Shown: in pieces, positions 13,496-46,866 of the stretch | How the letters are laid out: each line of letters begins with the position of its first letter | Position numbering within the stretch: the first letter of the stretch is position 1 | Source: Alteromonas naphthalenivorans | Lineage (GTDB): Bacteria > Pseudomonadota > Gammaproteobacteria > Enterobacterales > Alteromonadaceae | NCBI RefSeq assembly: GCF_000213655.1 | Contig: NC_015554.1 | Coordinates: 806,001-870,000 of the forward strand | DNA length: 64,000 nt | Direction: 5' to 3' | The notes under the pieces: model-generated | What the model saw: only the letters and a program-made list of their open reading frames with translations | What the model was told of the DNA's origin: nothing | Databases searched by the model: none | Translations under genes and position numbers: made by a program

Positions 13496-14563
13496 ATGTA
13501 CGAAAGTTACTATGGACTTAACGCTAAACCTTTTCAGTTAACACCAGACCCAGGCTTCTTTTTTGCCAGTAAGTGGCACAAACGCGCCATGTCATACCTT
13601 CAGTATGGGTTGTCGCAGGCGGAAGGGTTTATTGTTATCACAGGTGATATTGGTACGGGGAAAACCACCGTCGCGAATAGTTTGCTGGCTGAAATTCAAG
13701 ACGATATTTTTGCTGCCCAAATAGTCACCCCTAAACTGTCTCCTGATGAGCTGGTTAAAATGGTGGCGTCAAAGTTTGATATCAACACTGACGGAAGAAG
13801 CAAAGCTGAAATTCTCAAGATGCTTGAGGTGTTCTTATACGACCTAAGCACCCAAGGCCGCCGCGCATTACTACTTGTTGATGAAGCGCAGAACTTACCT
13901 TTGGAGTCTATTGAAGAGCTGCGCATGCTGTCTAACTTTCAGCTTAATGGTAAGCCGTTAATACAAAGCTTTTTATTAGGGCAAGAAGAGCTGCAGCCAA
14001 TTTTACGAGCACCCAATATGGAGCAGTTCAGGCAGCGTATAGTGGCTTCATGCCATTTAGCGCCGCTCACGTTAGATGAGTGCAAAGAGTATATTGAATA
14101 TCGCTTACATCATGCTGGCTGGAACGGCGAAGATTTGTTTTCAGAAGGGGCGTATGAGCGCATTTATAAGTTTACCCGCGGTGTGCCTCGTAAAATAAAT
14201 ACGCTGATGGATCGTATCATGCTTTTTGGCTTTTTAGAGGAGCTTAAAAGCTTTGATGAAGAGGCGGTAAGTGAGGTAATAGATGAAGTTAAAGCGGAAA
14301 TGTTTGAGCCTGAGAGTGGGGGGGGGCATTCAACATCCCAACCCCATGACTTTGCAGAGCACCCTGAAAACAAAACGATTATGACTCCCGGTGGGAATAT
14401 CATACGAGATACTAAATACTATCTTGATATGTTGGCCGAGTTGGTAGATGCGTTAGACGATGCAATATCGCATAAGGTTAAAATGACGCAGTATGTAGAT
14501 AAACTGATGAAGAAAAAGTTTAAAACGTACGTAAGGCTGAAGAGTACTGATAAGAGTGAGTAG
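13496..14563 (+). CDS. XrtA/PEP-CTERM-associated ExeA-like ATPase
   Basis: A 355-residue AAA ATPase of the ExeA/GspA-like group regularly found in exosortase A polysaccharide loci. It begins MYESYYGLNAKPFQLTPDPG, the standard family N-terminus, with Walker A GDIGTGKTT at residues 50-58 and Walker B LLLVDEAQNL near 124-133. A G9 homopolymer (14318-14326) encodes Gly-Gly-Gly near residue 275, after the ATPase core. A one-base slip in either direction would cut off the last part of the protein. It is convergent with the outer-membrane protein gene of the same system. Confidence 0.9.
   Translation: MYESYYGLNAKPFQLTPDPGFFFASKWHKRAMSYLQYGLSQAEGFIVITGDIGTGKTTVANSLLAEIQDDIFAAQIVTPKLSPDELVKMVASKFDINTDGRSKAEILKMLEVFLYDLSTQGRRALLLVDEAQNLPLESIEELRMLSNFQLNGKPLIQSFLLGQEELQPILRAPNMEQFRQRIVASCHLAPLTLDECKEYIEYRLHHAGWNGEDLFSEGAYERIYKFTRGVPRKINTLMDRIMLFGFLEELKSFDEEAVSEVIDEVKAEMFEPESGGGHSTSQPHDFAEHPENKTIMTPGGNIIRDTKYYLDMLAELVDALDDAISHKVKMTQYVDKLMKKKFKTYVRLKSTDKSE
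14318..14326 (+). repeat. G9 homopolymer inside the XrtA-associated ATPase gene
   Basis: Nine consecutive G within AGT-GGG-GGG-GGG-CAT. Loss of one G leads to a stop about 22 codons later; gain of one leads to a stop about 10 codons later. Both outcomes would remove the C-terminal region of about 80 residues but keep the Walker motifs. Confidence 0.9.
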
Positions 14564-14595: not shown

Positions 14596-16266
14596 TTACA
14601 TATAATTGTAAATAATCGAAAGGGTAATTCGTTGATCTGTGTAATTAGCGCCGAATTGCCCGCCAAGGTTGAGATCACCACTCTTTTCGATATAGTTATA
14701 ATCGATACTCGTCGTAAGTGAACGGCCAATTTTACGTTCCAAGCCTAACGACGCATTCCAGTTATCGGATTCACCAGTGGCGATATTCTCGCTATTAGAA
14801 CGTTCTTCGATATTTGCGTAAGTTATGTTGGAATTAAGATACATATAACTACCAAGTTTATAGGCTAGTGTAGTACCGAAACTATAGGTTCTCCGTAATC
14901 TATCTTCATCTAAATAATTACTCTCATCGTAACGCCAAGAGAAAGCTAGTGTTAACCTTGAAAAGTCGTACCCCGCTTGGAAGTTGGTACTCTTTAAAAG
15001 AATAATGTTGTCATCAAACGATACGTTTTGTGTAGTAAGTTGAATGAATTGCTCATCTGCACTTGGAGTGTAACTCAAACTGTTAGGTTGGAAGCAATCG
15101 GAAATTGAAGAAGAATTCGTAGGGCATATAAATACCCCCAAGTTATCGAAATCGGTCAACAATTGAGATGTATTAGTTACGTCTTCAGAGTACGATAAAG
15201 ACGTACGGAAATACTTTGAGTTATACTTGATATCGGCAGAGGCTGAATCTCCGTAAAAGCGTTTACCGTAGCTTCCTGCCACAGAAGTTCGGCTACTCAG
15301 TGCCCATTGTAGATCAAAGCCTATAAAATTATCGCTACCTTCGTCTGATATCTCTGAATCACTCGAATTAGCTGTAACCGAAATATATCTATCAGCATTT
15401 TGTCGGTACGTTAAACCTGCGCCGTACGAATTAAATTTTCTAGTGCTACTTGAGGTATCTATTCTGTTGGAGATCTGATTCGCTTCGTGGCTTGCAGTAA
15501 TCCTGAAAGCCCAATTTTCAATAAACACCGTATCCACGTATCCATCAGCAGTACGTGATATATAATCATTAGATGAGGTTTGGTTTCTTTCTGTATCTTG
15601 GTATGTACCTGAAAATTCCCAGATAAAACGCTGTGCATGCTCAGAGTTTTGTAAGGATCCAGAAAACTGCATGGTGCTGTTATCTAATCCATTCTCGGTA
15701 TTAGTTGTTGAGCTTTCGCTCTCCAAAGCAGAATAAGAGGCAGTGCCATAGGCACGTACCCAATCGCCTCTATCAATAATTGCTTGGGCAGCGACTCTGT
15801 TAGTTCTTGTTTTAGATAATGAATCAGCATTACTCAGAAAGTCAGAGACTAGGTAGTTACTAGAATCGGTATTCTGATAGGTTAGGCCACCAGATGCTTC
15901 AAAAAAAATAAATCTATCAAAAGGTGCCCAGTTTGCAGAGTAACTATATTCACCATAAGTATCCTTTCTGCTATTTATTTCCTTATCTCTCTCAAGGTGA
16001 GTTACTGAGCTGGTCCATGTCCCCGAAAACGTTCGAGACTCATAAATCGCATTTACTTTAGGGAGCAATGATACAGTCGTCAGTGATAACTCACCCTGTT
16101 CTTCTGAATTGACATCTTGAAAAGTCATTTCAGCTTCCGCGGAAGCTTTTATATCGAGATCAGCATACACACAAGCAGGAAAAAGCGAGGTTATGGAGAA
16201 CACAAACACGCTCGTTCCATATAGACTCAGTATATTTTGATTTCCCTTAAACTTTACGCTCGGCAT
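14596..16266 (-). CDS. XrtA/PEP-CTERM-associated outer-membrane protein (TIGR03016-like)
   Basis: A 556-residue predicted outer-membrane barrel: N-terminal signal region (SLYGTSVFVFSITSLFPACVYA) followed by very many Ser/Thr/Tyr-rich amphipathic strands. This matches the large outer-membrane component of exosortase A loci in position and composition. The chosen ATG at 16266 overlaps the end of the kinase frame by 20 bases. An upstream ATG at 16302 would begin inside the kinase tail. It probably acts in polysaccharide secretion with the export lipoprotein. It ends in IIYNYM rather than the usual terminal Phe. Confidence 0.8.
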   Translation of the reverse strand: MPSVKFKGNQNILSLYGTSVFVFSITSLFPACVYADLDIKASAEAEMTFQDVNSEEQGELSLTTVSLLPKVNAIYESRTFSGTWTSSVTHLERDKEINSRKDTYGEYSYSANWAPFDRFIFFEASGGLTYQNTDSSNYLVSDFLSNADSLSKTRTNRVAAQAIIDRGDWVRAYGTASYSALESESSTTNTENGLDNSTMQFSGSLQNSEHAQRFIWEFSGTYQDTERNQTSSNDYISRTADGYVDTVFIENWAFRITASHEANQISNRIDTSSSTRKFNSYGAGLTYRQNADRYISVTANSSDSEISDEGSDNFIGFDLQWALSSRTSVAGSYGKRFYGDSASADIKYNSKYFRTSLSYSEDVTNTSQLLTDFDNLGVFICPTNSSSISDCFQPNSLSYTPSADEQFIQLTTQNVSFDDNIILLKSTNFQAGYDFSRLTLAFSWRYDESNYLDEDRLRRTYSFGTTLAYKLGSYMYLNSNITYANIEERSNSENIATGESDNWNASLGLERKIGRSLTTSIDYNYIEKSGDLNLGGQFGANYTDQRITLSIIYNYM

Positions 16267-17133
16267 AGTAATATCCATAATATCCGCTTCCATCGGTATC
16301 ATGATGGACTGATTTGTTCACCACATATCCGATTGCCATATCGGGGTTGAGTCGCTCCACCGAAATTTTTATATCGCTAATTTTAGCTTTTCCTTCTTCG
16401 ACGACGACTACCGCCTGGCCTGCAAAGTTCGCTAAAATAGCGCTCTCATTAATACCGATTAGTGGGGGGTATCGAAGATGACTACACGATCAGGGTACCG
16501 GTTAGCAAATTCATCTACAGTTTCATGCATTTTTTGGCTAGCAAGCATCTCTGTCGAAAGGTGATGAGATTTACCCGCGGGGATTATCTTTAATTTATCT
16601 ATATTGGTGGAATATAGCACTTCAGATATGTCACTTACATCGCCAGCTAAGTATTCCATCAAACCTTTTCGCCGTTCAAGACCGAGCGTGTTCAGTACGT
16701 TGGGTTTCAGAACATCTGCGTCTACAAGCAATACTGTTTTATCTTGTTCAGATGCAATGCTTAAGGCTAAATTTGTAGCCGTAAAAGTCTTTCCTTCCGA
16801 TGGGCGACTACTGGTTACCATTATGATGTTTGGATTATTAAGCGTTTTAGAAAGTCCACCAAATGCGTTCGCTAAAAGTTTACGCTTAATTTCACGGTAC
16901 TCTTCATTAATCTGTTTTCGCTCACCCAATAGTGCGATATGACCACTTTCACTCAGACGCTCTAAATCTATATTAAACGGCTCTAACTGAGGAACTTGTG
17001 AAGTACTACCATGTAGGCTGTTTTCTAGCTTAGGAGACGATGTGGAGGCTTTTGATGAATTAGCATCATATTCATTATTGGTTTGCTTTGCTTCTTTTTG
17101 TTTTTGAAGCGCTTTTTCAATGGTATTGCGCAT
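16247..17133 (-). pseudogene. XrtA-associated tyrosine autokinase, frameshifted
   Basis: BY-kinase regulating polysaccharide chain length together with the adjacent Wzz-like protein. The uninterrupted frame covers 224 residues: Walker A as SRPSEGKT, Walker A' as VLLVDADVLKPN, and Walker B VVIFDTP, where it shifts and stops at 16459. Adding one C to the C6 run (16464-16469) restores DTPPLIGINES and a continuous frame to the TAA at 16247-16249. The total is then about 295 residues, the normal family length, ending in the tyrosine cluster YYGYYYAERKV that is autophosphorylated. The break therefore removes the end of the nucleotide site and all the tyrosines. It could be a phase-off state, a true mutation or a sequencing error. 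Confidence 0.85.
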
Positions 17134-19438: not shown

Positions 19439-19513
19439 GCCAACAAGAATTCTAGTCTATTAGAATAAATCCCTTTATGATGGGTTTACTTTGAAGTGTT
19501 AAGGGGCCAAGGG

Positions 19514-20926
19514 GTGGCAGTAAATAAGCGGAATCAAAATAAACGCTCTAATATTCTTGTATTAACAGAGGCGTTGCTCATAGCTTATATGGGATATATT
19601 ACGTACTTTATCCTTACGCAAGTTGGGCTTATATCAAAAGTTCCTCCAGAAAAGTTAATTATCAATGTAGGGCTACTTACCGTATCGGTATTGTTGTGCT
19701 CATTGTCAGTAGGTCTTTACGAAGCCAAACTCAGAGAAACCTTTCGCGGAATTATTAGACGGATATTTGTCAGTGTTGGGTTGAGTTACTTTCTTGTCGA
19801 GATAGTAAGTAGAGCATTATTCGATAAACTGGTTATGGACGCTTACTTTTTACCTGCTGCCGTATTCTCCATTATCATTACGCTTGTCATTTTCCGCTAT
19901 TTTACCAATCGTTTAGGGCTATTAGGGCTTGGGAAGGTTCGTATTGTGGTGCTAGGAGCGGGTGAAAGAGCGTCGATAATTGAAAAGCGCATGCGAAGAG
20001 ACGTCGATAGGATTGGTTTTGAAATGGTTGGGTTCGTGCCAATTCCTGGCGATAACCGAGAAGATGGCATTCGCAGAGAAAAAATTGTTCACATCAAAGT
20101 AGACGAAAATTTCCAGCAATTTATCAACGATAACGATATTGAAGAAATCGTCATCGCTTGTGACCAGCGTCGCGGCACACTGCCTGTTGAAGTCCTTTTT
20201 GAATGTCGCCTCCGTGGTATAGAGGTTACAGAATTACTTGATTTCATGGAAAGAGAAACTGGCCAAATTGTCGTTAACCTGATGTACCCAAGTTGGGTTA
20301 TCTACTCCAACGGTTTCCAAAGCCAAAACTACTTGAGAGATGCGCTTGATTATAGTCTCAATGTATTAGTGGCGGCATGTGTATTGGCTTTTGTTTGGCC
20401 TATCATGTTAACAACGGCACTAATTATATATTTAGATGATGGCCGTCGAACTGGTGTGTCGGTTTTTTACGCCCAGGAAAGGGTTGGCCTCAATGGTCAA
20501 TTATTTAAAATTCTCAAATTTCGTAGTATGCGCCCTGATGCCGAAAAAGATGGTGCTAAGTGGGCGAGTAAAAACGATGATCGCGTGACTCGTATTGGGC
20601 ATTTTATAAGAAAGTATAGAATAGATGAATTACCTCAGTTGCTAAATGTATTCAAGGGTGAAATGTCTTTCATTGGCCCCCGCCCCGAAAGGCCTCAATT
20701 TGTTGAGCAGCTAGTTAAAGAAGTTCCTTATTATAATCAGCGTCACAATGTAAAGCCTGGGTTGGCTGGGTGGGCACAGCTAAATTATCCTTACGGCGCG
20801 AGTGTAGAAGACTCTATGGAAAAACTAAAATTTGATCTTTACTATGTTAAACATCAGAGTTTATTGCTGGATATTTTAATATTAATAAGAACTGTAGAGG
20901 TGGTTTTATTTGGTAAAGGCCGATAG
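19514..20926 (+). CDS. XrtA-type priming sugar transferase (polyprenyl-phosphate glycosyl-1-phosphate transferase)
   Basis: A 470-residue inner-membrane enzyme that starts the repeat unit by putting a sugar phosphate on the lipid carrier. About four N-terminal helices, a CoA-binding-like domain (VRIVVLGAGERASIIEKR), another helix near residue 285, then the bacterial sugar transferase domain with FKILKFRSMRPDAE, RKYRIDELPQLLNV and SFIGPRPERP. This is the exosortase-associated family. GTG at 19514 has AAGGGG upstream at good spacing. An alternative GTG at 19496 would add six residues. First gene of the operon with xrtA. Confidence 0.93.
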   Translation: MAVNKRNQNKRSNILVLTEALLIAYMGYITYFILTQVGLISKVPPEKLIINVGLLTVSVLLCSLSVGLYEAKLRETFRGIIRRIFVSVGLSYFLVEIVSRALFDKLVMDAYFLPAAVFSIIITLVIFRYFTNRLGLLGLGKVRIVVLGAGERASIIEKRMRRDVDRIGFEMVGFVPIPGDNREDGIRREKIVHIKVDENFQQFINDNDIEEIVIACDQRRGTLPVEVLFECRLRGIEVTELLDFMERETGQIVVNLMYPSWVIYSNGFQSQNYLRDALDYSLNVLVAACVLAFVWPIMLTTALIIYLDDGRRTGVSVFYAQERVGLNGQLFKILKFRSMRPDAEKDGAKWASKNDDRVTRIGHFIRKYRIDELPQLLNVFKGEMSFIGPRPERPQFVEQLVKEVPYYNQRHNVKPGLAGWAQLNYPYGASVEDSMEKLKFDLYYVKHQSLLLDILILIRTVEVVLFGKGR

Positions 20927-20964: not shown

Positions 20965-22338
20965 ATGAGGAACGTCTTTAGTAAATTGAAACATTTCTGG
21001 GTACTTTTATTACTTGTGGTAACCTGGTTATTGTTCAATTATCCTATAATGGAGACAATTTGGGATCATGGATTCGATGACGGTACCTACTCTCATTCTT
21101 TTCTTGTTCCATTTATAGTTATCTATTTAATGTATATTCTGGAAGTTGAACAGCGGGTTTCTTTTCGTAGTTCGGTAAGTTGGTACTGGAGTGGTGTTCT
21201 TTTAAGTTCTGGTATTGCCCTGTGGATTGCAACTTGGTCCCAAATTAGCCTTTTATATTGGCTCATGTCTCTCATAGTCCTTATTACTCTAATTTTTCAA
21301 GTTTTTAAATTTAATATATCTACTCTATTTCCTGTAGCCTATCTTATTTTTATTTTCCCTTTCTGGGGTTCGCTAGCGATAGTTTTCCAAAATATATCGG
21401 TATTCATGGTAACGCTGCTAATGTCTTTTACAGATATACCAGTGTATGTTGAAAACGAGTTTGTAAATATTCCATCAGGAATTTTTGAGATAGCAGAAGG
21501 TTGTAGTGGTCTACGCTATATAATTGTAGCACTCGCAATCAGTAGCCTTTATGTATTTTTATATTTGCGAACCGCAAAGTCAGCAATCATCTTTACCGGC
21601 TTTGCTCTGTTAGGGGCCTTAGTAACCAATTGGGTCCGTATCCTACTCCTCATTATTATTGGGCATGTGACGGAGATGGAAAGCTCACTGATGACAGATC
21701 ATAATAACTTTGGTTGGTACATATATATTCCGGTAGCACTCGCTCAATTCTATTTGGGCAGTAAATTAGAGTCTTTAGAAGCTAAATCTGCTATTAAATC
21801 GAATTCCACTGATAAAGAAATCAAGCCCAGTCGGTACTCTAAATCGGCTCTGTATTCAGGGCTAATAATTGTAGGTGTATTTTCTTCAGCAACTGCGATT
21901 AGTCTAATACATGAGGAAAAAACAGATAAGTGTGATAACGAGTCCACGGAATTGAGGCCCGAAATAGCTGAATACTTAACAGTTTGCAATAGTTCCAATG
22001 AAGATGTCGTAAGATTAATCTACTTTTTTAACGGAAAGGATTTGGATAGTAAAGCAAGCTATTTTTTAAATGATATGCACCCAAGCGACTTTCACCTAAT
22101 CGAGCAACATAGTAATGACGCCTGGAACGTTGAGGAATTGGCGGGGCGAAGGGGCGCTTTGTATCTATTGGCCTACAGATACAAATTCAAATCTAACTAC
22201 TATTTGAATTTTACCGAGTTGAAGAAAGCTAGATTAATGGGGGCGTTATTAGGAGAAACTAATGTTGAAATTCAGTGGCGCTTTACTAAGTGTGAACAGA
22301 GTTGTGAACTCGAAGATATAGAGCGAGTGACAATGTGA
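20965..22338 (+). CDS. xrtA: Exosortase A with C-terminal EpsI-like extension
   Basis: A 457-residue multi-pass membrane transpeptidase that cleaves PEP-CTERM proteins and probably joins them to the envelope or matrix. The catalytic triad is visible: Cys180 in EIAEGCSGLRY, Arg225 in TNWVRI, His246 in DHNNFGW. About eight helices span residues 10-270. After another helix near 292-312, a soluble tail of about 145 residues follows, with four cysteines, resembling the EpsI-type domain often fused to or encoded beside exosortases. The next gene overlaps by 4 bases (GTGA). The PEP-CTERM candidate substrate lies about 24 kb away at 45967-46866. Confidence 0.95.
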   Translation: MRNVFSKLKHFWVLLLLVVTWLLFNYPIMETIWDHGFDDGTYSHSFLVPFIVIYLMYILEVEQRVSFRSSVSWYWSGVLLSSGIALWIATWSQISLLYWLMSLIVLITLIFQVFKFNISTLFPVAYLIFIFPFWGSLAIVFQNISVFMVTLLMSFTDIPVYVENEFVNIPSGIFEIAEGCSGLRYIIVALAISSLYVFLYLRTAKSAIIFTGFALLGALVTNWVRILLLIIIGHVTEMESSLMTDHNNFGWYIYIPVALAQFYLGSKLESLEAKSAIKSNSTDKEIKPSRYSKSALYSGLIIVGVFSSATAISLIHEEKTDKCDNESTELRPEIAEYLTVCNSSNEDVVRLIYFFNGKDLDSKASYFLNDMHPSDFHLIEQHSNDAWNVEELAGRRGALYLLAYRYKFKSNYYLNFTELKKARLMGALLGETNVEIQWRFTKCEQSCELEDIERVTM

Positions 22339-23411
22339 ATCATTCACAGAGTATGTATGTAATAGAAAATCTAGAAGAATTAAAAAAATTTAAAAAAAAT
22401 TGGTTGTCTCTTTATTCAAAAGCTCATGTGAAGAATATTTTTAATAGCTATGAGTGGGTATCTATCTGGGCTGAAAACTATAAGAGACACATCGAGCAGC
22501 TTTTTATTATAACATTTGAGATACGCTCGGAGTTAGTCGCCATTATTCCCTTGTATATTAGGAAAGGTGATAAAAGTAAGCTGTGGTACGTGGGTAGCGG
22601 TGAACCCCTGGATGCTGAAAGTTGCAGTGAAGGGCACGATATTTTGTGCTTAACCGATGAAATTCGCCCAAATATTAGTCTACTCCGTGCGGTGTTTAGT
22701 GAATATAAAATAAAAAATATTATGCTGACTAATATTCGTCAACATAGCCTGCTATTAAAATGGATAGAATTGGAAAGGTTCAAATTTATCAAGAATAAAA
22801 TTGGTTTTCGATTCTATAGTCCAACGCTTCCACACGATGATAAGCTAGCGAAAAAAACAGTAAGAGGAAGAAGAAACGCAGATAAGCTTAATTTGGTAAT
22901 TAGACGTGTTGAAACTGTTGGCGATTTAGAAAAAGTTTTTCCCAGTTTAGTTAGGTTAAACAGTGAGCGTTGGAAAGAAAAGGGCGATAAAGCTATCTTT
23001 GAAAACCACACGTTTCGCCATTTTCACTACTCGCTCACTCGTGCACTGTTAATATCTGATAAATTATCAATGGTATTGATCGAAGATAAAGATGAAATTA
23101 TAGCGGTTAATTATTCTATAATATCCGGTGAGGATCTTATTTTCTATCAAAATGGTGTCAATATAAAATACAAACCAAATATTTCGCCAGGGTTAATATT
23201 GCACCATTACCAATATTGTATTGCCCAGTCAATGAAGCTAGATTCGTACGACTTTATGACATCTGCTGACCCGAATAACTATAAGAAAAATATAACTAGC
23301 CATTCAGAGATTATTTACGAATTGGATGTTTTTCTCAATATTAATAGCTATGCGTTGTCTAAAGCAAAAAGTTTGAGTAAACACTTTTTTAAAAGAATTA
23401 TAAGTGCATGA
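22335..23411 (+). CDS. CelD/BcsL-type GNAT acyltransferase (FemAB-like)
   Basis: A 358-residue cytoplasmic protein with the double-GNAT pattern of the CelD/BcsL or FemAB-like group: an N-terminal NSYEWVSIWAENYKRHIEQL, and near the C-terminus an NGVNIKYKPNISPGLILHHY segment followed by DSYDFMTSADPNNYKKN. Such proteins often accompany exosortase A polysaccharide genes and probably transfer an acyl or aminoacyl group to a sugar or lipid-linked intermediate. Both ends overlap neighbours by 4 bases, so it is firmly in the xrtA operon. The substrate is unknown. Confidence 0.75.
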   Translation: MNHSQSMYVIENLEELKKFKKNWLSLYSKAHVKNIFNSYEWVSIWAENYKRHIEQLFIITFEIRSELVAIIPLYIRKGDKSKLWYVGSGEPLDAESCSEGHDILCLTDEIRPNISLLRAVFSEYKIKNIMLTNIRQHSLLLKWIELERFKFIKNKIGFRFYSPTLPHDDKLAKKTVRGRRNADKLNLVIRRVETVGDLEKVFPSLVRLNSERWKEKGDKAIFENHTFRHFHYSLTRALLISDKLSMVLIEDKDEIIAVNYSIISGEDLIFYQNGVNIKYKPNISPGLILHHYQYCIAQSMKLDSYDFMTSADPNNYKKNITSHSEIIYELDVFLNINSYALSKAKSLSKHFFKRIISA

Positions 23412-24757
23412 TGTCAGAATTAAAAAATAACAAGAATTCTAGCAGCCAACCAAACATGTCCTCAGCTCCCTTTGGCTTTTTCTTATTGTGTATTTATACC
23501 GCACTGGTGTTAATTAGACCTCATGAGTGGCCTATTTTTGATATACAGTTCCCCATTTTACGAATTATATTAGTATTAACATTCTTTACTTATTTAATCA
23601 CTCTAAGGCCTAAAGCTTGGAACACACAGTGTACCCTATTGATACTGTTGTTTCTTTCGATGTTGCTTTCAGAGGCAAGAGCTTTTAGGTTTTTCTCAGA
23701 TTTAGGCCCAGTTATCGATTGGATAAATTCTAATATTATCCCGTTTATAGTTTACTTGGGTTTTCTAACTACTTTAAAACGGCAAAAGACAATATTGATT
23801 ATTTCTATACTTTCTTGCGTTGTGTTTACACTGCATTCCTACGTACAGGTAACTAGTCTTCTAGGTGAGGGGTGGGCGGAGACAGTTATTACTCGATATG
23901 ACGGTCCAGAGCCAATAATTCAGGCACGGTACATTGGTATATTTAACGACCCAAACGATATGGGTATGTTTCTAGTAATGAATATTCCCATTGTTTTGTT
24001 TTTCATGTTTTCTACGACAAGTTCTATGAAGAAATTATTTTGGGGGGGGATAATTGTTTGGATGCTGCTCGGAATATATTGGACGGGGAGCCGTGGTTCT
24101 TTAGTAGGATTATTGGCGGTTATGGCTGCCATTTTTTATTTCAAATACGGAAAAGTAAAGTCTATTATAGTCGGATTAATTTCACTACCTATGATCACAA
24201 TAGGACTCAGCTCATTTAGGACTATCGGTAAGGATGACCAAAGTTCACTAGACCGTTTAACAGCGTGGTATCAAGGGATACAAATGTTTAAACATCGCCC
24301 TCTGTTTGGTTTTGGAAAAGAAAGGTTTCTTGAATACCACTCAAAAGTTGCGCACAATAGTTATGTAACTGTAATGGCCGAACTGGGCGTGTTTGGTTAC
24401 CTTTTGTGGATGTCATTCTTACTAATTACCTTTCTTCTGCTAGTTAAGATTGTGAGGCTCAAAAAGCCTAATGATTTGACTAACAGTGTGATCTGTAATG
24501 AAGAAATTGTTTTAGCAAAATACTTATTTATATCACTAATTGGATATTGCTCAACAGCATTTTTTATTAGTCGAAGCTATATTATGTTCTTTTATATGTT
24601 CGCCGCCATGGCAGCTGCAAGCTATATTCGTATTGGACAATATGAGCCAGAAAAAATTAAAGCTTTATCAGGTAGCGATATTGGAAAAGTTTTCATATTG
24701 AGCGCAATAAGTCTAATTTTACTATACGTATTGATAACTGTTTTGCTCAACTTGTAA
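23408..24757 (+). CDS. O-antigen ligase/polymerase-family protein, exosortase A-associated
   Basis: A 449-residue protein with about eleven membrane helices and the conserved periplasmic motifs of the O-antigen ligase/Wzy_C family: FNDPNDMGMF, WTGSRGSLVG and HNSYVTVMAELG. The N-terminus (YTALVLIRPHEWPIF) is typical of the exosortase A-associated subgroup. It probably polymerises or ligates the exopolysaccharide or a protein-linked glycan in the periplasm. ATGA overlap with the upstream gene. A G8 tract at 24042-24049 encodes Trp-Gly-Gly; loss of one G gives an immediate stop about halfway through the protein. Confidence 0.88.
   Translation: MMSELKNNKNSSSQPNMSSAPFGFFLLCIYTALVLIRPHEWPIFDIQFPILRIILVLTFFTYLITLRPKAWNTQCTLLILLFLSMLLSEARAFRFFSDLGPVIDWINSNIIPFIVYLGFLTTLKRQKTILIISILSCVVFTLHSYVQVTSLLGEGWAETVITRYDGPEPIIQARYIGIFNDPNDMGMFLVMNIPIVLFFMFSTTSSMKKLFWGGIIVWMLLGIYWTGSRGSLVGLLAVMAAIFYFKYGKVKSIIVGLISLPMITIGLSSFRTIGKDDQSSLDRLTAWYQGIQMFKHRPLFGFGKERFLEYHSKVAHNSYVTVMAELGVFGYLLWMSFLLITFLLLVKIVRLKKPNDLTNSVICNEEIVLAKYLFISLIGYCSTAFFISRSYIMFFYMFAAMAAASYIRIGQYEPEKIKALSGSDIGKVFILSAISLILLYVLITVLLNL
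24042..24049 (+). repeat. G8 homopolymer in the ligase/polymerase gene
   Basis: Eight G within TTT-TGG-GGG-GGG-ATA. With seven G the frame reads TGG-GGG-GGA-TAA and stops at once. With nine it runs out of frame for several dozen codons. Either would destroy the conserved C-terminal motifs. Confidence 0.9.
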
Positions 24758-29617: not shown

Positions 29618-30544
29618 TTGAAACAAGTTGTAGTTGGAATAATTACTTATAGGCGGCCGAGTTGGTTAGAAAGGCTTATAACCGAGCTTTTGAGGCAGCG
29701 AACAGATGGTTTCGTATATAGTATCCTTGTAGTAGATAACGCTGATGACCCCGAGACTCAATCTGTTATAGACTCCTTTCGTGCTGCAGACAATACCTCA
29801 CCTATAATTTATAAAGTTGAACCCGAAAGAGGGATTGTCGCAGCTCGCAATCGTGTGGTTTCTGAGTTTCTAATGCTAAACGCGGACTTTCTCGTTTTCA
29901 TCGACGATGATGAGTGGCCGGAACGTGACAACTGGCTGATAAGGCTCGTGAACAAAGCCTTAAGCTCCGAAGCTGATGTAGTAACAAGTCACGTTATCTC
30001 TGTAGATGAGAGTATGGGGAAAAACTGGGCAACAGAAATTCTGTACACATCCAACACTATTCAAGAAGGGCAAATTCTATCAACGTTTTACACTAATAAC
30101 CTATTACTTTCAGGTACTTTGTTGAAAGATATGCATCCTTGTTTTGATGAAAGATTTGCTTTGACTGGCGCGAGTGATTATCACTTTTCTTTGAAGTGCC
30201 ATAAACGTGGCTATAGTTGTATTTATACAGATGCGCCCGTCATCGAAGAGTTTCCAGACTCGAGAGCTAACCTAAAATGGTTTTGTCGTCGAGGTTTTCG
30301 TTCGGGGGTAGGCTATACACGCTCTCATTTGTTCGAGGAACCTTTAGCTATAGTGGTATTCAAATGCACCGCGCTATCCTTTATTCGTTTTATTAGGGGG
30401 GGGGGGTTGATCCTAAAATCTCTTTTTAATTTGGATAAAGCTACTTTTGTTGATGGCTTGTTTAGGATGTGCTCTAGCGTCGGAACTATTGCTGGCTTTT
30501 TGGGTATCAAACACAATGAATACCAACATACTCACGGAAAGTAA
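29618..30544 (+). CDS. Glycosyltransferase family 2 carrying a G11 tract
   Basis: A 308-residue GT-A enzyme beginning VVVGIITYRRPSWLERLI, with VEPERGIVAARNRVV and an acidic VFIDDDEWPE metal site. The start is TTG at 29618 with ACGGAG upstream at good spacing. From residue about 260 the frame passes through eleven consecutive G (30396-30406) encoding Arg-Gly-Gly-Gly, then about 45 residues follow. With ten G the next codon after the tract is a TGA stop. With twelve a TAA stop comes about eight codons later. The gene is in frame in this sequence. The tract makes it a strong candidate for on/off switching by slipped-strand mispairing. Confidence 0.9.
   Translation: MKQVVVGIITYRRPSWLERLITELLRQRTDGFVYSILVVDNADDPETQSVIDSFRAADNTSPIIYKVEPERGIVAARNRVVSEFLMLNADFLVFIDDDEWPERDNWLIRLVNKALSSEADVVTSHVISVDESMGKNWATEILYTSNTIQEGQILSTFYTNNLLLSGTLLKDMHPCFDERFALTGASDYHFSLKCHKRGYSCIYTDAPVIEEFPDSRANLKWFCRRGFRSGVGYTRSHLFEEPLAIVVFKCTALSFIRFIRGGGLILKSLFNLDKATFVDGLFRMCSSVGTIAGFLGIKHNEYQHTHGK
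30396..30406 (+). repeat. G11 homopolymer inside a glycosyltransferase gene
   Basis: Eleven consecutive G following ATTA and preceding TTGATC. It is the longest G run noticed in the window and lies wholly within coding sequence. Both one-base slips lead to prompt stops, as expected of a contingency switch. Confidence 0.95.
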
Positions 30545-32554: not shown

Positions 32555-33526
32555 ATGATAACTAGCATGATGTCTATAATTACGTTTTTTAGTAGCTTAC
32601 TGGTGCTTTTATATCTAGTGGGTATGCACTTTCAACCAATTTCTGACCATCCTATAAGCTACTTTCTGGAGTACGTTCCAGATTATATTTTAGTAATATT
32701 AGCTGCTCCCATACTTTTTACAAAAATGCGCTTTAAATATTGGGTATTCTGTTTTTTTTTACTAATGATACTTATATCATCTCCTTTTCAGTTGAACTTA
32801 TTAAAGGGTAGTGAAGAAAGCCTAAAATACGACACATTGAATATTGCCTCGTTTAACGTTGCTCAACGAGTCGATGAGGCCGTGTTATACGCTTGGTTCA
32901 GGCATCACGACATAGATATCTTATTCATTCAGGAAGCAAGGGATAAGCAATTAGATGCTGCGGAAGAAAACGACTTATACTCGTCTTGTAAGCCACGCTT
33001 ATGTGTTTTGTCTAAATATCCGATAGAAGATTACGAAACGATAGATAGACGAGCACTAGAGGAGTGGGGGCTTTTTGCTTCACTGCACTCAATCTTGGTT
33101 GGGAAGAAAAAGGTATTTCTTATGAATACTCATTTTGCTTCAATATCTAATTTTGGTTTTGAATTCTCTTCTTTGAATGGTTTCTTATCTAAAATGATAC
33201 TATTCAAGGAGTCGAAAGCAATTGAATTTGGGTTGGTAAAATCAATGCTTTCCAGCTTCGTTTATGATGAGCACTTCATTATCGCCGGTGACTTTAATAT
33301 TACAGATAGAAATCCTCAATATAAAAAGTATTGGGGAAATTTTGAGAATCTATTTCGTGAAGTAGGCTTTGGATACGGCTCAACTCGAATCCACCCTTGG
33401 CTTTCCCCTAGAATAGACCATGTGCTCATTAGCAATAAGCTAAAGGCTAACAAGGCCTTAGTTGGTAACGATTTAGGAAGCGATCACCTTCCTATCTTAG
33501 GAAATATTAGCTTGTTGGATGAATAA
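32555..33526 (+). CDS. Membrane-anchored endonuclease/exonuclease/phosphatase (EEP)-fold protein
   Basis: A 323-residue protein with two or three N-terminal membrane helices (about residues 5-23, 39-60 and 66-76) and a C-terminal EEP domain. The domain shows the usual catalytic blocks: LNIASFNV, DILFIQEAR with its metal-binding Glu, IIAGDFNIT, RIDHVLIS and LGSDHLPI. It resembles YafD-type proteins. Topology could put the domain in the periplasm. In the middle of a polysaccharide operon it may act on a phosphodiester in a lipid-linked intermediate or glycan rather than on DNA; this is inference only. It overlaps the next gene by 8 bases. Confidence 0.8.
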   Translation: MITSMMSIITFFSSLLVLLYLVGMHFQPISDHPISYFLEYVPDYILVILAAPILFTKMRFKYWVFCFFLLMILISSPFQLNLLKGSEESLKYDTLNIASFNVAQRVDEAVLYAWFRHHDIDILFIQEARDKQLDAAEENDLYSSCKPRLCVLSKYPIEDYETIDRRALEEWGLFASLHSILVGKKKVFLMNTHFASISNFGFEFSSLNGFLSKMILFKESKAIEFGLVKSMLSSFVYDEHFIIAGDFNITDRNPQYKKYWGNFENLFREVGFGYGSTRIHPWLSPRIDHVLISNKLKANKALVGNDLGSDHLPILGNISLLDE

Positions 33527-45912: not shown

Positions 45913-45945
45913 CAAAAAAAAAGCGACCTTCCGGTCGCTTTTACA
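45913..45945 (-). terminator. Strong intrinsic terminator after the PEP-CTERM gene
   Basis: AAGCGACC (45921-45928), loop TTCC, GGTCGCTT (45933-45940). On the minus strand the stem is followed by a run of T (complement of A at 45914-45922). It ends the PEP-CTERM transcript and isolates it from prsT. Confidence 0.9.
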
Positions 45946-45966: not shown

Positions 45967-46866
45967 TTAAGCTTTTTTAACTCTACGCAATCCAGCAAGA
46001 CCAATTAAACCTAGGCCCATCATTGCTATTGAAGCAGGAGATGAAACTTGGATTTCAAGGTTAGCACTTGGAAGAGTAGTTGTACGCGTTAAGAAAACTT
46101 CGTTATCGTAGTCATCTAAATCGATGCCTAAAGAAGTCAAAACATCAGTTTCAAAACTAGTTACAGCGAAACCTTGATCAGTAGGAGCTTGAGTCGCATC
46201 AGTGATCTCTGCAGTAATGGTTGCACCATACTGGCTCGGGTCATTATTAGCTACAACTGCTGCTAAATCAGAATCACCATTGAAAGATGGATCCAAGAAG
46301 AACAAGTTAGCTAAAACTGTTTCTATTTCAGCAAAAAGAGAAAGGTTAACACCACCGCCAGCATTAAATGTAGAACCCGTCAATGAAAGTGTCATTGCAC
46401 TTACTGGGTCCACGCCATCTGTAACGTCGTCGTCAAAATACATGTTGAAGAAACCACCAACGAATTGAGCAGCTAAAACTTCACCATCATCAAACACACC
46501 GTTTGCAACTACGTCGTCACTGATACCAGCATAACCCCAAAGTTTATAATCAAACGTTAGACTCCATGCATCTGTAAAGAATTCATCTGAACCTGTATCA
46601 GGGTTTAAAAGACCTACTTCACCTACAGCGCTATCAAAAACTAGTGTGCCATTTTGGATACCGTCGCCTTCTAGATCTAAATAAGTAGAAACAGGCTGAA
46701 GATCGTTGAATGTGAATGCGTCAAAGGTGTATGTGAAACCATCAGCATCACCAAAAGGTACGCCGCTATCGTTGTCACCCGAGTTTACATACAATGGTGC
46801 TGCAGAAGCCATTGCTGTGCTTCCTGCTAAAACCACACCTGCAAAAATTTTAGTTAGCTTGTTCAT
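45967..46866 (-). CDS. PEP-CTERM-type exported protein, candidate exosortase A substrate
   Basis: A 299-residue secreted protein with signal peptide MNKLTKIFAGVVLAGSTAMA (cleavage after ASA), an acidic Asp/Asn-rich body, and a C-terminal sorting signal: short motif VSSPAS, hydrophobic helix IAMMGLGLIGLAGL and basic tail RRVKKA. The tripartite layout is that of PEP-CTERM, but Ser-Ser-Pro replaces Pro-Glu-Pro, a variant seen in marine gammaproteobacteria as far as I recall. Exosortase A (20965-22338) would recognise it. Transcription is from a sigma-54 promoter about 50-67 bases upstream and ends at a strong terminator, so it is a single-gene unit. Confidence 0.88.
   Translation of the reverse strand: MNKLTKIFAGVVLAGSTAMASAAPLYVNSGDNDSGVPFGDADGFTYTFDAFTFNDLQPVSTYLDLEGDGIQNGTLVFDSAVGEVGLLNPDTGSDEFFTDAWSLTFDYKLWGYAGISDDVVANGVFDDGEVLAAQFVGGFFNMYFDDDVTDGVDPVSAMTLSLTGSTFNAGGGVNLSLFAEIETVLANLFFLDPSFNGDSDLAAVVANNDPSQYGATITAEITDATQAPTDQGFAVTSFETDVLTSLGIDLDDYDNEVFLTRTTTLPSANLEIQVSSPASIAMMGLGLIGLAGLRRVKKA

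What the first reader, a model, noticed from the sequence alone, without database searches (positions are those of the whole stretch)
30396..30406. G11 tract in a glycosyltransferase: a likely on/off switch for the polysaccharide
Eleven G lie inside the coding region near residue 260 of 308. With ten G the frame reads ...GGT-TGA and stops at once; with twelve it stops about eight codons later. Runs of this length are rare unless maintained, and slipped-strand mispairing at such tracts is the classic mechanism of surface-glycan phase variation in Campylobacter and similar genera. It has not, to my knowledge, been described for exosortase A loci.
Basis: partly seen in the sequence, partly recalled or inferred. 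Interest (0 to 1): 0.8.

Follow-up and report, generated by a model that had tools for sequence, protein, structure and literature searches.

The report
Slippery G-runs in an Alteromonas slime locus
A run of eleven Gs really does sit inside a sugar-adding enzyme gene of a marine bacterium's polysaccharide locus, and public protein records suggest that it and a similar run in a neighbouring gene change length, so the locus may well make on/off variants by copying slips, though reversible switching itself has not been shown.

Summary
Confirmed: G11 at 30396-30406 lies in an intact 308-aa GT2 glycosyltransferase (29618-30544, +); 10 or 12 G would end the protein at 263 or 270 aa, removing a confidently predicted, conserved C-terminal helix.
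(1) Public protein P0001 equals this enzyme with one Gly fewer: a length change at the tract, frame kept.
(2) The PF04932 ligase/polymerase 6 kb upstream has G8; public protein P0272 is letter for letter its +1 frameshift product, an OFF allele.
(3) In this genome the locus's tyrosine autokinase is cut short at a C6 run; 58 of 58 other genomes of the genus keep it open.
(4) Three of the genome's 11 G/C runs of 8 or more lie within 16 kb here.
Against a maintained switch: 0 of 11 genus relatives with the enzyme carries the tract; runs of 10 or more occur in 31 of 59 genus genomes, also in housekeeping genes; no OFF allele of this enzyme was seen; only proteins, not DNA, of the variants were seen; reversibility is untested. 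Best reading: a slippage-prone, phase-variation-like polysaccharide locus, recent and lineage-specific; unselected hotspots remain a serious rival.

The parts
30396..30406 (+). G11 homopolymer, codons R260-G263 of the glycosyltransferase
   Evidence: Public protein with one Gly fewer: P0001.
29618..30544 (+). GT2 family glycosyltransferase, 308 aa, TTG start
   Evidence: PF00535 E 8.7e-19, 68.5 bits, cut-off 23.3; model with mean pLDDT 92.7; the 50 PDB rows shown, recognised by eye as glycosyltransferases, are 10-19% identical.
24042..24049 (+). G8 homopolymer in the ligase/polymerase gene; a +1 frameshift product of it (OFF) is public protein P0272
23408..24757 (+). O-antigen ligase/polymerase family protein (PF04932), 449 aa
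   Evidence: PF04932 precomputed on P0241, which differs by one residue; TIGR03097 72.3 bits, below its cut-off of 188.1.
16464..16469 (-). C6 run (G6 on the + strand) at which the autokinase reading frame ends early in this genome
   Evidence: no run of six in 29 relatives inspected, the closest having C5 (L132).
16459..17133 (-). XrtA-associated tyrosine autokinase, cut short at 224 aa; the conserved remainder is open in another frame to about 16250
   Evidence: TIGR03018 211.1 bits (cut-off 230.65), model positions 7-157 of 207; open frames of 287-355 aa in 58 of 58 other genus genomes, 242 here.
14318..14326 (+). G9 homopolymer in the part after the ATPase domain of the XrtA/PEP-CTERM-associated ATPase
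   Evidence: this part differs in P0121 and P0122.
13496..14563 (+). XrtA/PEP-CTERM-associated ATPase
   Evidence: TIGR03015 361.5 bits, cut-off 324.5, residues 1-268.
19496..20926 (+). TIGR03013 family XrtA/PEP-CTERM system glycosyltransferase
   Evidence: 531.9 bits, cut-off 393.35.
20965..22338 (+). Exosortase (EpsH family)
   Evidence: TIGR02602 184 bits, cut-off 105.55; TIGR03109 (exosortase A) 163.9 bits, below its cut-off of 208.

Best explanation
The G11 is a slippage-prone homopolymer in the coding region of a GT2 glycosyltransferase in an exosortase-type exopolysaccharide locus of an Alteromonas. Gain or loss of G by slipped-strand mispairing changes the frame. Any net change that is not a multiple of three removes the C-terminal helix 274-295 and the conserved tail and should inactivate the enzyme; multiples of three leave it ON. 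The same happens at the G8 of the ligase/polymerase, where an OFF product is on record, and the autokinase is cut short at its C6 in this genome. The locus thus throws off polysaccharide variants in the way homopolymer phase variation does. Shown: the tracts, the frames, an in-frame length form of the glycosyltransferase and a frameshift form of the ligase (both as public proteins), and a frame-broken autokinase in this assembly. Inferred: slippage as the cause, loss of enzyme function, polysaccharide change, reversibility, and selection (for example by phages or grazers) for keeping the tracts.
For: P0001 equals the window enzyme minus one Gly of RGGGL, all else identical. P0272 equals the predicted G9 product of the ligase from Met17 on, out-of-frame tail included, so the DNA behind it must be nearly identical. 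Autokinase open frame 242 aa here vs 287-355 aa in 58 of 58 other genus genomes. Three of 11 genome-wide G/C runs of 8 or more lie within 16.1 kb (p 0.005 for any such trio; 0.002 for two or more of the other ten in the 33.5-kb locus), in a genome whose sampled coding DNA has fewer long runs than the synonymous null. Tail conserved and mostly well folded. Proven analogue in an aquatic gammaproteobacterium: poly-A tracts A8 in wbeL and A9 in manA of Vibrio cholerae O1 (PMC3441752, abstract and passages).
Against: No OFF allele of the glycosyltransferase itself was seen among the 120 cluster representatives listed (of 223). 0 of 11 genus relatives with the enzyme has the tract (the nearest, 75% identical, reads AGG GGA GGG GGC TTG), and 0 of 13 has the ligase tract. 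Regions around the same enzyme in 10 relatives hold no coding runs of 8 or more (0 vs 1.23 expected; one C9 lies outside the ORFs counted). Runs of 10 or more occur in 31 of 59 genus genomes, own included, also in genes that look like housekeeping genes. The DNA, source and sequencing method behind P0001 and P0272 were not available. Three tracts in one locus is a small number, and the window was chosen because of one of them. mutS and mutL are present without inner stops (mutH not checked), so no mutator background was found.
Confidence: 0.45

Rival explanations
1. Chance homopolymers acting as plain mutational hotspots. Synonymous drift in Gly-rich stretches of an accessory locus with weaker codon bias made the runs; indels there are just the commonest way in which dispensable polysaccharide genes are lost, with no selection for switching.
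For: Tracts absent from relatives; G/C runs of 10 or more in 31 of 59 genus genomes, many outside long ORFs or in genes unrelated to glycans; the locus uses GGG and AGG more than the genome sample (0.188 vs 0.137 of Gly codons; 0.153 vs 0.073 of Arg codons); the only other glycosyltransferase form seen keeps the frame, as purifying selection for ON would. In the related genus Pseudoalteromonas a one-G duplication in a capsule-operon gene arose in a mutS-deficient population (PMC10634453, passages), a hotspot without a shown switch.
Against: The excess of runs persists when the locus's own codon use is the null, and regions around the same enzyme in 10 relatives show none.
Confidence: 0.36
2. 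Artefact: the length differences are homopolymer errors in assemblies, including the C6 in this genome's autokinase.
Against: In a 400-kb sample of this genome, of 32 G/C runs of 6 or more 16 lie inside frames of 150 aa or more, 16 are unclassified and 0 were flagged as splitting a gene; in the window 1 of 9. The test needs frames of 80 aa or more on both sides, so small splits would be missed. G8 vs G11 is a clean 3-base difference that keeps the frame; P0001 is listed on 2 contigs.
Confidence: 0.14
3. RNA-level slippage: RNA polymerase or the ribosome slips on the G11, so that a fraction of the product is always full length or always truncated and DNA length matters less.
For: Long homopolymers are known slip sites (recalled). 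[quoted passage not shown]
Against: Does not explain differences in the encoded sequences themselves; no direct evidence here.
Confidence: 0.05

Closest known systems
Phase-variable O1-antigen genes wbeL and manA of Vibrio cholerae O1 (PMC3441752; abstract and passages read)
   Same: Coding homopolymers of 8-9 bases in surface-polysaccharide genes of an aquatic gammaproteobacterium; one-base changes truncate the enzyme; more than one gene of the pathway is affected.
   Different: Poly-A, not poly-G; the wbeL tract is said to be conserved in all 37 strains examined there; variants were isolated under phage selection, and reversibility was confirmed for manA but not wbeL. None of that is shown here.
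Poly-G/poly-C phase-variable loci of Campylobacter jejuni (PMC4965091; abstract read)
   Same: G/C tracts; the paper counts 29 loci with tracts of seven or more in NCTC11168 and compares slippage from G8 to G11.
   Different: There the tracts are numerous and switching is established; here they are few, clustered in one locus and lineage-specific.
Capsule genes with (G)8 and (C)10 repeats in Akkermansia muciniphila, which also has an exosortase (PMC3048395; passages read)
   Same: Long G/C runs in capsular polysaccharide genes of an exosortase-bearing bacterium, proposed as phase-variable.
   Different: The passages do not place these genes in the exosortase locus and report no length variants.
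Capsule-operon frameshift in a Pseudoalteromonas lipolytica mutator (PMC10634453; passages read)
   Same: A one-G duplication in a polysaccharide-operon gene of a related marine genus, linked to translucent variants.
   Different: Arose in a mutS-deficient strain; the passages do not call it a homopolymer switch; mutS is intact here.
Exopolysaccharide/PEP-CTERM/EpsH loci (PMC1569441; abstract read)
   Same: Gene content: exosortase, ATPase, initiating transferase, autokinase, PrsT-like protein.
   Different: No tract-based variation is mentioned in the abstract.

Membership tests
Homopolymer (SSR) phase-variable contingency locus | G/C run of 7 or more inside a coding region | tested here: met
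   G11, G9 and G8 in three genes of the locus.
Homopolymer (SSR) phase-variable contingency locus | One-base length change truncates the product and removes needed parts | tested here: met
   Frames; conserved tail and helix. Loss of activity itself is inferred.
Homopolymer (SSR) phase-variable contingency locus | Tract length differs between very close relatives | tested here: met
   At protein level only: P0001 (in frame) and P0272 (ligase, OFF). DNA not seen.
Homopolymer (SSR) phase-variable contingency locus | ON and OFF alleles of this very gene (the glycosyltransferase) | tested here: inconclusive
   Only ON lengths seen; the other members of the 90% cluster of P0001 (5 members) cannot be read.
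Homopolymer (SSR) phase-variable contingency locus | Tract kept across strains or species | tested here: not met
   Across species: 0 of 11 other genus genomes with the gene; ligase 0 of 13. Within the species untested. This weakens long-term maintenance; it is not needed for a young tract to switch.
Homopolymer (SSR) phase-variable contingency locus | Reversible, high-frequency switching in a clonal population | not testable with these tools
   Needs reads or cultures.
Exosortase A (XrtA) exopolysaccharide locus | Exosortase A itself over its model's cut-off | tested here: inconclusive
   TIGR02602 184 bits (cut-off 105.55, met); TIGR03109 163.9 bits (cut-off 208, not met).
Exosortase A (XrtA) exopolysaccharide locus | XrtA-associated ATPase and TIGR03013 transferase | tested here: met
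   361.5 bits (cut-off 324.5) and 531.9 bits (cut-off 393.35).
Exosortase A (XrtA) exopolysaccharide locus | PrsT-type TPR protein and a PEP-CTERM target protein nearby | tested here: inconclusive
   TIGR02917 287.1 bits, below 312.2; candidate 45967-46866 has no NCBIfam match at 1e-5; its tail only looks PEP-CTERM-like by eye.
GT2 glycosyltransferase | PF00535 over its gathering score, glycosyltransferase fold | tested here: met
   68.5 bits vs 23.3; glycosyltransferases among the best PDB fold matches.

The most novel reading that the evidence does not exclude
The locus is a multi-gene combinatorial switch: independent G/C tracts in the glycosyltransferase (G11), ligase/polymerase (G8), autokinase (C6) and ATPase (G9) let one Alteromonas lineage generate several polysaccharide states, and with them perhaps states of exosortase-sorted surface proteins. 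Among the papers these searches could reach I saw no earlier case for an exosortase locus.
Probability: 0.22. Interest if true: 0.7.

Novelty: new member of a known kind. Interest (0 to 1): 0.5.

Why it matters
Homopolymer phase variation is known mainly from host-associated bacteria (recalled). A marine genus that slips polysaccharide genes on and off would bear on phage resistance, particle attachment and aggregate formation in the sea, and would tie the poorly tested exosortase system to a switchable polysaccharide. The claim can be tested with one culture and PCR-free reads.

Tried and rejected
Rejected: 'G11 alone proves a switch'. The genus census shows runs of 10 or more in 31 of 59 genomes, own included, in many kinds of genes and outside long ORFs. 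Rejected: a mutator background; mutS and mutL are present without inner stops (mutH not checked). Rejected: a general property of this gene neighbourhood in Alteromonas; regions from 10 relatives show no excess. Rejected: an assembly full of homopolymer errors; 0 of 32 runs flagged as splitting a gene in the sample.

Led nowhere: the tract pattern in viral contigs, 0 hits; strain-level DNA of the same species, since the genome collection holds one genome per species and metagenome scans were capped at 0; the ATPase protein search, whose best entry is 92% identical and shows no length form of the window's own G9. One search failed on a script error and was rerun. One search gave wrong codons for minus-strand rows and no autokinase rows and was replaced.

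Limits: genome statistics rest on 20 stretches, 400 kb of 4.97 Mb, with ORFs of 120 aa or more as stand-ins for genes. Tract contexts were read for 50 loci (30, the window's own among them, and 20), not for every tract; the run of more than 70 G in G030 was left out as a likely assembly fault. One search used 40 kb around the enzyme in 10 of the 11 relatives (G012 left out); the ligase is nearby in all 10, but in G036 and G009 the autokinase lies elsewhere; a C9 in G058 lies outside the ORFs counted. Autokinase codons were read in 30 of the 60 matches (own plus 29). In some searches only about 8000 candidates sharing most words were scored. The alignment holds the window protein and 45 chosen of the 120 listed hits. 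Gene names given to relatives' ORFs are by eye (recalled).

Full report
WHAT IS THERE. The window is bases 806001-870000 of a single-contig 4.97-Mb genome. G11 stands at 30396-30406 in an intact 308-aa glycosyltransferase gene. Its codons are AGG GGG GGG GGG, Arg260-Gly263. The enzyme matches PF00535 (68.5 bits, gathering score 23.3); its model has mean pLDDT 92.7, and the 50 PDB matches shown, among them SpsA, TarP, TarS and hyaluronan synthases, are 10-19% identical.

WHAT A SLIP WOULD DO. With 10 G the protein ends at 263 aa, with 12 G at 270 aa; 8, 11 and 14 G keep the frame. The tract lies in the long helix 243-271, and both truncations lose helix 274-295 (mean pLDDT 95 and 97 for residues 271-280 and 281-290, 76 for 291-300; the last eight residues are at 45). 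In 46 aligned sequences six columns after the tract are invariant (F282, R283, G289, G296, E301, Y302) and six more nearly so (K274, G280, S286, G293, H306, G307). Inactivation is therefore likely, but it is inference.

LENGTH ALLELES. The best database match to the enzyme, P0001 (5 member sequences, 2 contigs), has 307 aa and is identical to the window protein except that RGGGL is RGGL. The simplest reading is G8 against G11; the frame is kept. The genus relatives align without a gap at this site, so the shorter form is probably the derived one. I could not see the DNA, the source or the other cluster members.

THE LIGASE NEXT DOOR. The PF04932 gene 23408-24757 has G8 at 24042. Database protein P0272 (254 aa; 4 member sequences, 1 contig of 2918 bases) equals the +1 product of that tract from Met17 on, out-of-frame tail included, letter for letter. 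The tract is the longest homopolymer of the gene. P0241, with one change (M2I), is the full-length form, listed on 16 contigs. So an OFF form of a neighbouring gene is on record, beside a commoner ON form.

THE AUTOKINASE. ORF 17133-16459 (-) matches the XrtA-associated tyrosine autokinase model only to position 157 of 207 and ends at a C6 run; the conserved remainder is open in another frame. All 59 genus genomes have the gene; the 58 others have open frames of 287-355 aa against 242 here. Of 29 relatives inspected none has a run of six; the closest (L132) has C5. So intact copies exist in the relatives, and this genome's copy is frame-broken at a homopolymer.

CHANCE AND CLUSTERING. The genome has 11 G/C runs of 8 or more; three lie within 16.1 kb of this locus. 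Random placement gives such a trio in 0.5% of trials. In sampled coding DNA such runs are rarer than a synonymous shuffle predicts (19 vs 40 at 6 or more; 0 vs 2.0 at 8 or more), while in the locus they are commoner (8 vs 3.3; 3 vs 0.29), also without the glycosyltransferase gene (7 vs 3.1 at 6 or more, p 0.03; 2 vs 0.6 at 7 or more, p 0.11; 2 vs 0.22 at 8 or more, p 0.017). Regions around the same enzyme in 10 relatives (362 kb coding) show no excess (28 vs 31.7 at 6 or more; 0 vs 1.2 at 8 or more), and their background sample shows 24 vs 38.4 and 1 vs 2.4. The excess belongs to this lineage. The window was selected for its G11, which inflates any test that includes it.

EVIDENCE AGAINST A MAINTAINED SWITCH. 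Of 59 genus genomes 12 have the enzyme; none of the 11 others has the tract, the nearest being interrupted. Likewise 0 of 13 for the ligase. Runs of 10 or more occur in 31 of 59 genomes, own included. Of 30 loci read, 16 overlap an open frame of 80 aa or more (the window's own included), and of 20, 10 overlap one of 100 aa or more; those I recognise by eye include a tRNA cytidine acetyltransferase, thymidylate kinase, a MATE transporter, a Rieske oxygenase and an NtrC-type regulator, besides one OafA-like acyltransferase. A long G run is thus not by itself a sign of contingency in this genus.

IS IT AN EXOSORTASE A LOCUS? Nearly: the exosortase passes the general model (184 vs 105.55 bits) but not the XrtA-specific one (163.9 vs 208); the ATPase and the TIGR03013 transferase pass; the PrsT-like protein, the ligase and the cut-short autokinase fall below their models' cut-offs.

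VERDICT. Observation confirmed; interpretation partly supported. As far as sequence can show, the locus works like a homopolymer phase-variable polysaccharide locus: tracts, frames, one in-frame and one OFF form in public data, and a frame-broken autokinase. It is not shown to be one: reversibility, frequency and phenotype are untested. The nearest proven case is V. cholerae O1 wbeL/manA (PMC3441752, abstract and passages). In the listings for phase variation with exosortase, PEP-CTERM or Alteromonas and the passages read of PMC3048395 and PMC2627896 I saw no such report; Akkermansia comes closest.

Noticed in passing
window 16250-17133 (-): XrtA-associated tyrosine autokinase is frame-broken at a C6 run in this genome, while 58 of 58 other genus genomes keep it open.
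   Followed up: yes
window 24042-24049: G8 in the ligase/polymerase gene, with a +1 frameshift product (P0272) in public data.
   Followed up: yes
window 14318-14326: G9 in the variable part after the ATPase domain of the XrtA-associated ATPase; length variation could not be checked.
   Followed up: partly
P0277: Another ligase of this family (59% identical) ends early at 260 aa, on a contig of 4487859 bases, the same length as that of P0004; possibly another broken ligase.
   Followed up: no
window 45914-45922 and 32752-32760: A9 about 85 bases upstream of the PrsT-like gene start, and T9 inside ORF 32555-33526: other homopolymers of the locus.
   Followed up: no
L044 (genome 4768867-4772867): C9 in the 3' end of an MsbA-like ABC transporter gene, just beside a transposase-like ORF (names by eye).
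   Followed up: no
genome G030 C7:189966 onward: A run of more than 70 G in a relative's assembly, probably an assembly fault.
   Followed up: no
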